Origin: Actinomycetota bacterium
Lineage (GTDB): Bacteria; Actinomycetota; Actinomycetes; Nanopelagicales; Nanopelagicaceae
DNA: 15,641 bases
Direction of reading: 5' to 3'
NCBI GenBank assembly: GCA_009705185.1
Contig: WLCS01000008.1
Coordinates: forward strand, 1 to 15,641
The position numbers and the translations under genes were made by a program. Positions 8,902 through 13,132 of the stretch are shown here, in pieces (positions within the stretch are counted from its first letter, which is position 1; each line of letters starts with the position of its first letter). The notes beneath the pieces are model-generated. The model did no database searches. It was not told the origin of the DNA and saw nothing but the letters and a program-made list of their open reading frames with translations.

Positions 8902-9519
8902 ATGCCACACACGCTTCTATTAGCAACTCGGAATAAAGGAAAAATTGAAGAGTTTCGGCGCATTCTTGATGCAGTCGCCCCTGGCGAAATTGATTTAGTG
9001 GGGCTTGAGAATTTTCCTGATCTACATGATGTTGTTGAAGACGGGAAAACTTTCGAAGAAAATGCGTTAAAAAAAGCGCGAGAGATGTGTTTAGCGACTG
9101 GAATTCCAGCAATCGCTGATGACAGCGGACTGTGCGTTGATTTTCTTGGGGGAGATCCTGGGATTTTTTCTGCTCGTTGGGCAGGCGAACATGGCAATGA
9201 TGTAGAAAACACAAAGAAAGTACTCGAGCAATTGCGCGATGTTCCAGAAGATAAACGCACTGCACACTTCACATGCGTAGCAGCTCTCTATCTTCCCGAT
9301 GGACGAAGCCATTGCGAGGAAGCGGAATTTCATGGCTCGATTTTGTTTTCACCCGTGGGTGAGCACGGGTTTGGCTATGACCCAATTTTTCAACCTGACG
9401 GCTATTTGGTTTCTAGCGCACAAATGAGCGCAGAAGAGAAGGATGCAATCAGCCATCGCGGGAAATCACTGCGGGCAATAGCACCTCATGTGATCACTTT
9501 GCTGCGGAGCCTAGGTTAA
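8902..9519 (+). CDS. rdgB: XTP/dITP diphosphatase RdgB/HAM1 (non-canonical purine NTP pyrophosphatase)
   Basis: RdgB hydrolyses dITP, XTP and similar deaminated nucleotides to monophosphates, keeping them out of DNA and RNA. The 205-residue protein shows LLATRNKGKIEEFRRIL (substrate loop), FEENALKKAREM, AIADDSGLCVDFLGGDPGIFSARWAG (metal-binding and catalytic Asp), FGYDPIFQPDG and AEEKDAISHRGKSLRA. All the conserved blocks are present. The ATG follows directly on the rph stop TAA, with no ribosome-binding site of its own, so translation probably depends on ribosomes finishing rph. The rph-rdgB pairing is usual in Actinobacteria. Confidence 0.95.
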   Translation: MPHTLLLATRNKGKIEEFRRILDAVAPGEIDLVGLENFPDLHDVVEDGKTFEENALKKAREMCLATGIPAIADDSGLCVDFLGGDPGIFSARWAGEHGNDVENTKKVLEQLRDVPEDKRTAHFTCVAALYLPDGRSHCEEAEFHGSILFSPVGEHGFGYDPIFQPDGYLVSSAQMSAEEKDAISHRGKSLRAIAPHVITLLRSLG

Positions 9520-9528
9520 ACTTGTACC

Positions 9529-9534: not shown

Positions 9535-9580
9535 CCGGCGAGATTAGTCCAGATGTTCATCAACTCAAGGAGATAAAAAA

Positions 9581-10414
9581 GTGGCAGTAAAAAAGAAGGC
9601 AGCAGCTAAGAAAGCTGCACCAAAGAAAGCAGTAAAGAAGAAGTCAGCTGTTAAGAAGACAGCAGCGAAGAAAGCTGCACCAAAGAAGGCTGCCAAGAAA
9701 GTTGTTAAGAAGGCAGTAAAGAAGTCTCCTGCAAAGAAGACTGCTAAGAAGACAGCAAAGCGTGCCGTTAAGAAGTCTGCAATTAAGAAGTCAACAGGTT
9801 CACAGGTAGTTATTCCTCCAGTGCCTTCAGTAGGTTCTTCACGAGTGAATGTCTCAACTACTCCGACTTCATCTCGCCCTGCCGCATCATCTAAATCTTC
9901 TGCTAGCGCTGCAAAGCCAGCAGCAAAGAGCCAAGGATCTAATTCGAAGGTACTTTTCGTAGTTCTTCTTGGAATTCTTGCACTCGGCGCAATCGTTATC
10001 TCAAACTCAAATAAAGATGGCGATGATGCACCTGCTCCGGTTCCAGCTGTAACAGAGAGCGCTGAACCAGCGGCTACAGAATCAGCAGCACCAGAAGCAA
10101 CTGCTGAAGAAGCTCCAGCTGCGACAACAGGTGAAGCTCCATCACGATTTATCGGAAATTGGAAAGACAGCGCAAAGTCAGTAATGGTTATTACGTGGAA
10201 GGCACCAGCTGGAGATGTGAAGGGTTACAAAGTAGAGACACGTGCAAACCCAGGAGACTGGAAAGTTGTATCTGAAGTTTCTGCAACAACTCTCTCTGCA
10301 GAATTTGCAAAGACATCAACAGATGGATCAACATCATTTAGAGTTTCTGCAGTGTATGCAGATGGCTCAGTTGGTGTAGCTACACCATTCGGATTTGCTG
10401 GTCAGTTCGAATAA
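9581..10414 (+). CDS. Membrane protein with histone-H1-like lysine-rich N-terminus and FN3-like C-terminal domain
   Basis: This 277-residue protein has three parts. Residues 1-71 are a Lys/Ala/Pro repeat tail (KKAAPKKA-type units) like eukaryotic H1 tails and bacterial histone-like proteins, which suits DNA binding. Residues 72-122 are a Ser/Pro-rich linker. Residues 124-141 form one membrane segment (VLFVVLLGILALGAIVIS). An acidic Pro/Ala/Glu/Thr-rich stretch follows (about 145-188), then a beta-rich module (about 189-277) resembling fibronectin type III (VMVITWKAP, VKGYKVETR, TSFRVSAVYADGS). Positive-inside topology puts the lysine tail in the cytoplasm and FN3 outside. GTG start with strong AAGGAG at 8 nt. 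Lysine is coded mostly by AAG, unlike neighbours, which hints at high expression. The role as a nucleoid-envelope tether is inference; no named family is recognised for the whole protein. Confidence 0.85.
   Translation: MAVKKKAAAKKAAPKKAVKKKSAVKKTAAKKAAPKKAAKKVVKKAVKKSPAKKTAKKTAKRAVKKSAIKKSTGSQVVIPPVPSVGSSRVNVSTTPTSSRPAASSKSSASAAKPAAKSQGSNSKVLFVVLLGILALGAIVISNSNKDGDDAPAPVPAVTESAEPAATESAAPEATAEEAPAATTGEAPSRFIGNWKDSAKSVMVITWKAPAGDVKGYKVETRANPGDWKVVSEVSATTLSAEFAKTSTDGSTSFRVSAVYADGSVGVATPFGFAGQFE
9584..9795 (+). repeat. Low-complexity AAG-rich repeats coding the Lys/Ala tail
   Basis: This tract has imperfect direct repeats of the unit aagaaagctgcaccaaagaa (seen near 9609 and 9669) and many shorter aagaagncagc units. 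It encodes the lysine tail. Such tracts can change length by slippage, so copy number may vary between relatives. Confidence 0.7.
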
Positions 10415-10424
10415 TTTCAGTAAG

Positions 10425-10459
10425 AAAAAACCCCGGCCAAGAAATTGGTCGGGGTTTTT
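10425..10459. terminator. Bidirectional rho-independent terminator
   Basis: A 10-bp stem, CCCCGGCCAA (10431-10440) against TTGGTCGGGG (10445-10454) with one G.U pair in RNA, encloses a GAAA loop. It is flanked by six A's on the left and five T's on the right, so it works in both directions. It lies 10 bp after the plus-strand gene ending at 10414 and 26 bp after the minus-strand gene ending at 10486. Confidence 0.92.
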
Positions 10460-12230: not shown

Positions 12231-13049
12231 TTACTTACGCTTTGGAGAAGTTTTCTTAGCTGTCTTCTTAGGCGCTTCTAATGCACGGCTAGTGCGCTTG
12301 CTTTCAACTTTAATGGGAGCAGACTTCTTTACAGTTCCATCTTCGTTGATCGCATTGTTAACAACATCTTGCATGCGGCTAAGTCGTGCAAAAGCTGAAT
12401 CGAGTTTTTCGCGAGATTGAGCAATCGCTGCTTCTGCTGCGCTAAGAGCTTGTGTTTGTGTACGGTATAAACGCTCTGACTCAGAGATCATGTCAGCTAA
12501 CCATGCGCGGTAGTCATTTACATTTGTTGACGCTTCAGAAATTACTCGCTCTGCTTCACGACGTGCTGCAGTTGCAAGAGCTGCTGCTTCACGACGCTTT
12601 CCATCGACAATTGATTCTGCTTCGCGCACCTTTGCATCAGCTACAGCTGCTGCCTCGCGGCTAGCATCTCTAATGAGTTCTGAGGCTTCGACCTCAGCGG
12701 CCGAGATGTACTTGCGGCCACGACTTTCGGCGCCTGCCAGAATGCTGCGCGCCTTATTTTCTGCACTTTCAAGAGTGTCTTTCGCATTGCGTGATGACTC
12801 TGTAATTAAGCGTTCTGCAGCTGCGTTTGCTTTAGCTTCGCGTGCTTGCGCGGACTTAACCATCGCCATCGCTGTTTCAGTAGCGAGAATTTCAAACTCT
12901 TCGCGTGAGAGACCAGTGATATCGCGGCGAGAACGTAGATCAGCAAGTTGTGATTCGAGATCGCGAATACGATCGACAGGGTTTCCTACTGGTTCGCGTT
13001 CTGTTTCATCGCGGAAACCAACCCAGTTGCGAAAATTCTTCTCGGCCAT
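12231..13049 (-). CDS. Ala/Glu-rich coiled-coil protein, DivIVA/SepIVA-like, with lysine-rich tail
   Basis: The first 60 residues include a short N-terminal coiled coil (DRIRDLESQLADLRSRRD). About residues 55-215 are a long Ala/Glu/Arg heptad region with repeated units such as ESAENKARSILAGAESRG, SREAAAVADAKVREAES and TAARREAERVISEA. This pattern is like actinobacterial DivIVA/Wag31 and SepIVA scaffolds, but the typical DivIVA N-terminal membrane-binding module is not seen, so I do not assign a name. The C-terminus is basic (KKTAKKTSPKRK), resembling the lysine tail of the protein at 9581-10414. I chose ATG 13049 (272 aa), with a weak GAG ribosome site; ATG 13064 would add five residues. It is co-transcribed with the acyltransferase gene, suggesting a role in cell growth or envelope assembly, by inference. 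Confidence 0.8.
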   Translation of the reverse strand: MAEKNFRNWVGFRDETEREPVGNPVDRIRDLESQLADLRSRRDITGLSREEFEILATETAMAMVKSAQAREAKANAAAERLITESSRNAKDTLESAENKARSILAGAESRGRKYISAAEVEASELIRDASREAAAVADAKVREAESIVDGKRREAAALATAARREAERVISEASTNVNDYRAWLADMISESERLYRTQTQALSAAEAAIAQSREKLDSAFARLSRMQDVVNNAINEDGTVKKSAPIKVESKRTSRALEAPKKTAKKTSPKRK

Positions 13050-13132
13050 CGTAACTACTCTCATTCACGGTATCGAAGGGATCTGTGTCGGGGGCTTTAC
13101 ATCCCGGCAGAGGCCAAGATTAGAGCATTTCT

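What the first reader, a model, noticed from the sequence alone, without database searches (positions are those of the whole stretch)
9581..10414. Histone-H1-like lysine tail fused to a membrane anchor and an external FN3-like domain
The layout is seen directly: about 70 residues of Lys/Ala/Pro repeats, one transmembrane helix, an acidic spacer and a beta-sandwich-like module. If the tail binds DNA, as similar tails do, the protein would tie the nucleoid to the envelope, with a sensor or wall-binding module outside. Such a one-protein link is not a described system that I can name. A strong ribosome site, AAG-biased lysine codons and its own terminator suggest high, independent expression.
Basis: partly seen in the sequence, partly recalled or inferred. 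Interest (0 to 1): 0.7.

Follow-up and report, generated by a model that had tools for sequence, protein, structure and literature searches.

The report
Membrane-anchored lysine-tail protein with outer domain
Most genomes of one family of freshwater bacteria carry a gene for a membrane protein with a DNA-binding-like lysine tail inside the cell and a fibronectin-type domain outside, which may tie nucleic acid to the cell envelope, although no binding has been tested.

Summary
ORF 9581-10414 (277 aa) has a disordered Lys/Ala tail (31 Lys, no Asp/Glu in residues 1-75), one predicted transmembrane helix (122-141), an acidic spacer and a confidently predicted FN3 domain (187-277). It is not a chance extension: 265 of 296 genomes of the order match (two of these are doubtful), gene order is conserved, and in 394 genomes of the class all full-length matches listed are in the own family.

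In this family AKK-type tails also sit on HU, a DksA-like protein, sigma factor, ribosomal protein L17 and topoisomerase I. The best reading is an envelope-anchored nucleic-acid tether, most likely for the nucleoid (confidence 0.5). DNA versus RNA is not settled by sequence.

This protein adds an outer FN3 domain and matches no Rv3852 model. I call it a new variant of a known kind.

The parts
9514..9523 (+). GGTTAAACTT, conserved promoter-like (-10-like) element overlapping the rdgB stop codon
   Evidence: 39 of 46 family upstream regions hold GGnTAnnCTT; pattern picked by eye first; Markov control mean 0.6, max 3. Consensus sigma-70 scan finds nothing here.
9567..9572 (+). AAGGAG ribosome-binding site, 8 nt before the GTG start
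   Evidence: sequence; AGGAG-like site in 46 of 46 members, start choice partly circular
9581..10414 (+). whole gene, 277 aa, lysine tail - transmembrane helix - acidic spacer - FN3
9581..9805 (+). residues 1-75, Lys/Ala tail (31 Lys, 0 Asp/Glu), predicted disordered
9806..9829 (+). residues 76-83 VVIPPVPS, conserved proline motif at the end of the tail
   Evidence: motif found in 222 of 230 full-length members
9944..10003 (+). residues 122-141, single transmembrane helix
   Evidence: hydropathy at least 2.19 in 230 of 230 members
10004..10138 (+). residues 142-186, acidic Ala/Pro/Thr/Glu spacer
   Evidence: first 45 residues after the helix net acidic in 228 of 230
10139..10411 (+). residues 187-277, FN3 domain, predicted outside the cell
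10426..10459 (+). terminator-like stem between two convergent genes
12231..13064 (-). coiled-coil protein with weak Wag31/DivIVA similarity and a short Lys-rich C-terminal end; conserved neighbour and possible partner
   Evidence: partnership is inference

Best explanation
A single-pass membrane protein with the tail inside and the FN3 domain outside. The roughly 75-residue lysine tail, on a further flexible linker, binds nucleic acid in the cytoplasm without sequence specificity, most likely the edge of the nucleoid, and so tethers it to the membrane. The outer FN3 domain, on its acidic spacer, contacts the cell wall or another envelope protein and decides where the tether sits. The conserved coiled-coil neighbour may help to place it, as Wag31 and Rv3852 are reported to interact in M. 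tuberculosis. Shown by computation: anatomy, predicted fold, conservation and gene order. Inferred: topology (positive-inside rule), nucleic-acid binding, DNA rather than RNA, the FN3 ligand and the partner.
For: Conserved across the family: 265 of 296 genomes of the order match, with tail, helix and FN3 in the 26 aligned members. Charge layout: 29 to 51 Lys+Arg and 0 to 4 Asp/Glu before the helix in 230 members, net acidic after it in 228. FN3 fold. The same kind of tail in this family sits on HU, a DksA-like zinc finger, sigma-70, L17 and topoisomerase. Precedents: Rv3852, tethered to the membrane while bound to DNA, and HbhA, whose AKKA-bearing C-terminal part is necessary and sufficient for DNA binding, both from passages. 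Conserved coiled-coil neighbour in 19 of 19 long loci; joint presence 258, neither 22, one alone 16 of 296.
Against: No binding, localisation or expression data. Similar repeats on L17, and the failure of RplV to bind DNA, fit RNA binding as well. The nucleoid role of Rv3852 itself is called disproved in PMC6155035 (passage). Genera g5, g6, g7 and g14 give no full-length match even with the profile, so the tether is dispensable there. Co-occurrence with the neighbour may only reflect linkage and shared descent.
Confidence: 0.5

Rival explanations
1. RNA or ribosome tether: the tail binds rRNA or mRNA and holds ribosomes or nascent membrane-protein complexes at the membrane.
For: AKK-type tails also on ribosomal protein L17 in genus g14; in M. 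tuberculosis the AKKA-bearing RplV failed to bind DNA and is known to bind 23S rRNA (PMC10665949, passage).
Against: Tails on HU, sigma-70 and topoisomerase point to DNA as much. No ribosome-related gene is in the conserved block.
Confidence: 0.2
2. General polyanion anchor: the tail binds acidic lipid head groups or polyphosphate, or only enforces topology, with no chromosome role; the FN3 domain does the work outside.
For: Tail length is loose: P0001 has the same FN3 but a tail 20 residues shorter; composition rather than sequence is conserved.
Against: A tail of about 30 Lys is far more than topology needs (inference); it keeps its near-total lack of acid across genera and resembles the tails of nucleic-acid proteins.
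Confidence: 0.18
3. Reversed topology: the lysine tail is outside as an adhesin for polyanions, like the glycoconjugate-binding role reported for HbhA.
For: The HbhA C-terminal domain is reported to bind sulfated glycoconjugates (PMC10665949, passage).
Against: 34 Lys and 3 Arg before the helix and an acidic stretch after it put the N-terminus inside by the positive-inside rule; no signal peptide before the tail by eye.
Confidence: 0.05
4. Chance low-complexity extension on an FN3 membrane protein.
For: Tail length varies, also between near-identical sequences; 6 of 239 gathered gene models have no tail, not checked for truncation.
Against: The tail is present across the genera aligned, with 230 of 239 models starting MA[AV]KK or nearly so.
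Confidence: 0.03

Closest known systems
Rv3852 (annotated H-NS) of Mycobacterium tuberculosis, NCBIfam NF050153
   Same: Lysine-repeat region plus one transmembrane helix; reported membrane tethering while bound to DNA (PMC8233713, passages). Reported partner Wag31/DivIVA; a weakly Wag31-like gene lies two genes away here.
   Different: Rv3852 has its helix at the C-terminus; here 136 residues follow the helix, including FN3. The window protein has no NF050153 match at E up to 1.
HupB and HbhA of M. tuberculosis
   Same: Lys/Ala/Pro repeats reported to give sequence-independent DNA binding (PMC10665949, passages).
   Different: The passages describe no transmembrane helix or FN3 domain; the repeats lie in the C-terminal part.
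HC2 / histone H1-like proteins (PF07382)
   Same: Lys/Ala repeat composition; 20 of 26 members touch the model at E up to 1.
   Different: The window protein scores 17.5 bits against a cut-off of 40; membrane helix and FN3 are extra.
   Same: Lys/Ala/Pro tail plus one hydrophobic helix in 5 of 20 regions fetched; two scanned resemble Rv3852_fam below cut-off, 80.2 and 43.8 bits against 100.
   Different: No domain after the helix.
DdbA-type DksA-like protein with an H1-like tail in Streptomyces (recalled; one listing only)
   Same: Same tail type; the family of this window has its own DksA-like tailed protein.
   Different: Soluble, no transmembrane helix by hydropathy.

Membership tests
Fibronectin type III domain | Seven-strand beta-sandwich of about 90 residues | tested here: met
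Fibronectin type III domain | Match to Pfam PF00041 above cut-off | tested here: inconclusive
   10 of 26 family members match at E up to 1, best 2.9e-4; the window protein itself does not. The family profile does hit FN3 chains in the PDB, best E 7.4e-18
HC2 histone H1-like (PF07382) | Score above the curated 40 bits | tested here: not met
   17.5 bits
Rv3852 family (NF050153) | Match to the curated model | tested here: not met
   No NCBIfam family at E up to 1
Rv3852 family (NF050153) | Transmembrane helix at the very C-terminus | tested here: not met
   Helix at 122-141 of 277
Rv3852 family (NF050153) | Lysine-repeat region plus a single membrane helix | tested here: met
Nucleoid-associated proteins | Binds chromosomal DNA | not testable with these tools
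   Inferred from composition and from proteins that carry similar tails

The most novel reading that the evidence does not exclude
A lineage-wide trans-envelope coupler: one polypeptide grips the nucleoid inside, crosses the membrane and reads or binds the wall outside, positioned with its coiled-coil neighbour as a reduced chromosome-envelope organiser in tiny streamlined cells in which 10 of 10 genomes searched show no Pfam DivIVA match.
Probability: 0.22. Interest if true: 0.78.

Novelty: new variant of a known kind. Interest (0 to 1): 0.5.

Why it matters
If the tail binds DNA, nearly the whole family (Nanopelagicaceae by record names) would carry a dedicated chromosome-to-envelope tether with an outside module, whereas Rv3852 is described as confined to M. 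tuberculosis and close relatives (PMC8233713, abstract). It would make nucleoid-envelope coupling testable with a single gene and give a natural comparison between genera with and without it.

Tried and rejected
Rejected: chance extension. Rejected: no precedent. Not supported by scan: a consensus sigma-70 promoter. A DivIVA identity for the neighbour 12231-13064 is not shown: no Pfam DivIVA match in the scan, only a weak NCBIfam Wag31 match, E 2.7e-4, 20.9 bits against a cut-off of 260; PF05103 rang in 0 of 10 genomes while ringing in 7 of 14 controls. A rooted gain-or-loss history: the tree of rph plus rdgB leaves the forks at the base of the family open and has long branches, so gain versus loss of the gene in g5 and g6 is unresolved. 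Literature searches for this protein: searches gave nothing on it in the listings; PMC11039613 (passages) does not contain the words fibronectin, histone or nucleoid. The library holds open-licence papers only.

Not followed: whether the 6 tail-less gene models of 239 are real; which surface of the FN3 domain is conserved; expression data.

Doubtful rows and rows dropped: of the 265 matches, G037 and G040 lie near E 1e-3 and are not borne out by the profile search (none in G037; the G040 hits are FN3-range pieces in open frames of 1,959 and 3,945 aa). G091 was a miss but has the gene. G029 shows only the start of a lysine-rich gene at a contig end. Truncated or gapped loci L017, L024, L028, L031 were left out, and L001 was left out as the window itself.

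Full report

More than chance. 265 of 296 genomes of the order have a match at E up to 1e-3, and 102 of 108 of the good-quality ones. Two of the 265 (G037, G040) are doubtful and one miss (G091) has the gene. The tail is not a quirk of one genome: of 239 gathered proteins 230 begin MA[AV]KK or nearly so, and these have 29 to 51 Lys+Arg and 0 to 4 Asp/Glu before a strongly hydrophobic helix, with a net acidic stretch behind it in 228. These 239 are top hits and fetched loci, not a random sample. The VIPPVP-like motif is in 222 of the 230. Members are down to 39 percent identical to the window protein and keep the layout. Nine of the 239 gene models do not begin so: six have no tail, two start inside it, one is extended; I did not check whether the six are truncated.

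Gene neighbourhood. In the 19 long loci the coiled-coil gene comes next in 19. A GGnTAnnCTT element is upstream in 39 of 46. It was picked after looking, and the sequences are related, so the control (mean 0.6, maximum 3) overstates the case.

Where it stops. In 394 genomes of the class, 39 genomes, all of the own family, have matches from tail to FN3 at E 1e-59 or better; the next match listed is at 4e-14 and covers the tail only. The matches listed outside the family cover the tail region or the FN3 domain, some reaching the helix region. Within the family, the profile finds no full-length copy in the genomes of g5, g6, g7 and g14 that were searched. In three g6 loci rdgB is followed directly by a convergent MFS-like gene (named by eye), and the acyltransferase gives no match in five g6 genomes. 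The tree cannot say whether this is loss or late gain.

What tails of this type do. In the same family AKK-type tails are on HU, a DksA-like zinc-finger protein, sigma-70 and, in g14, ribosomal protein L17; a topoisomerase in g7 has a lysine-rich stretch. Each of these works on DNA, RNA or RNA polymerase. The window protein is the only tailed membrane protein of the family met here; whole genomes could not be listed, so others may exist. The HU gene of the own genome is cut by a contig end before any tail.

Precedent. Passages of PMC8233713 describe Rv3852 as tethered to the membrane by a C-terminal helix while bound to DNA, and as binding and helping to place Wag31. PMC6155035 (passage) says that the role of Rv3852 as a nucleoid protein was disproved, citing a paper not held. 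PMC10665949 (passages) reports DNA binding by the AKKA-bearing C-terminal part of HbhA, credits the AKKA/PAKKA repeats of HupB with efficient DNA binding, and reports no DNA binding by RplV. So tail composition alone cannot decide between DNA and RNA. In 5 of 20 regions fetched for lysine-rich or FN3 hits, mostly outside the family, a lysine-repeat protein with a C-terminal helix turned up, all in one unnamed family f4; two were scanned and resemble the Rv3852 model below its cut-off.

Possible partner. The neighbour 12231-13064 is a coiled-coil-like protein with a weak Wag31 match. It matches in 267 of 296 genomes. Both genes are present in 258, neither in 22, only the FN3 gene in 7 and only the coiled-coil gene in 9. 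They lie close together on the chromosome and share descent, so this is a hint and no test.

Verdict. Anatomy and conservation are firm. Membrane topology is very likely. A nucleic-acid tether is the best reading at 0.5, because the nucleic-acid step is inferred. The kind is known from Rv3852; the outer FN3 domain, the N-terminal position of the tail and the family-wide conservation make it a new variant.

Noticed in passing
G035 contig C57 (genus g5, same family), hits from about 88352 to 116899; L214: A single open frame of 16,932 residues with many FN3-like matches, in a genome of about 1.9 Mb that lacks the full-length protein of this report.
   Followed up: no
window 9581-9805 against P0001: P0001 is identical in the FN3 part but its tail is 20 residues shorter, as if one repeat block were lost or gained.
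   Followed up: partly
window 9806-9829 and relatives: A proline motif VIPPVP directly behind the tail is in 222 of 230 members; other tailed proteins, such as the DksA-like one, also have a proline run (MPPPPRP) some way behind their tail.
   Followed up: partly
L218, L220, L222, L224 (genus g14): Ribosomal protein L17 carries a long C-terminal AKKAPAKKA tail (Pfam scan on L218 only).
   Followed up: partly
L158-L160 (genus g6): rdgB is followed directly by a convergent MFS-like gene; the FN3-tail gene is absent there and the acyltransferase gives no match in five g6 genomes, as if a block were missing.
   Followed up: partly
L065, L068, L091, L092, L121: Records titled Bifidobacterium breve or Streptomyces griseus MAG hold this family's gene; the titles may be wrong.
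   Followed up: no
window 12231-13064: The coiled-coil neighbour has a Lys-rich C-terminal end and AAG-rich lysine codons (14 of 19), the highest AAG share of the 15 other window genes counted.
   Followed up: partly
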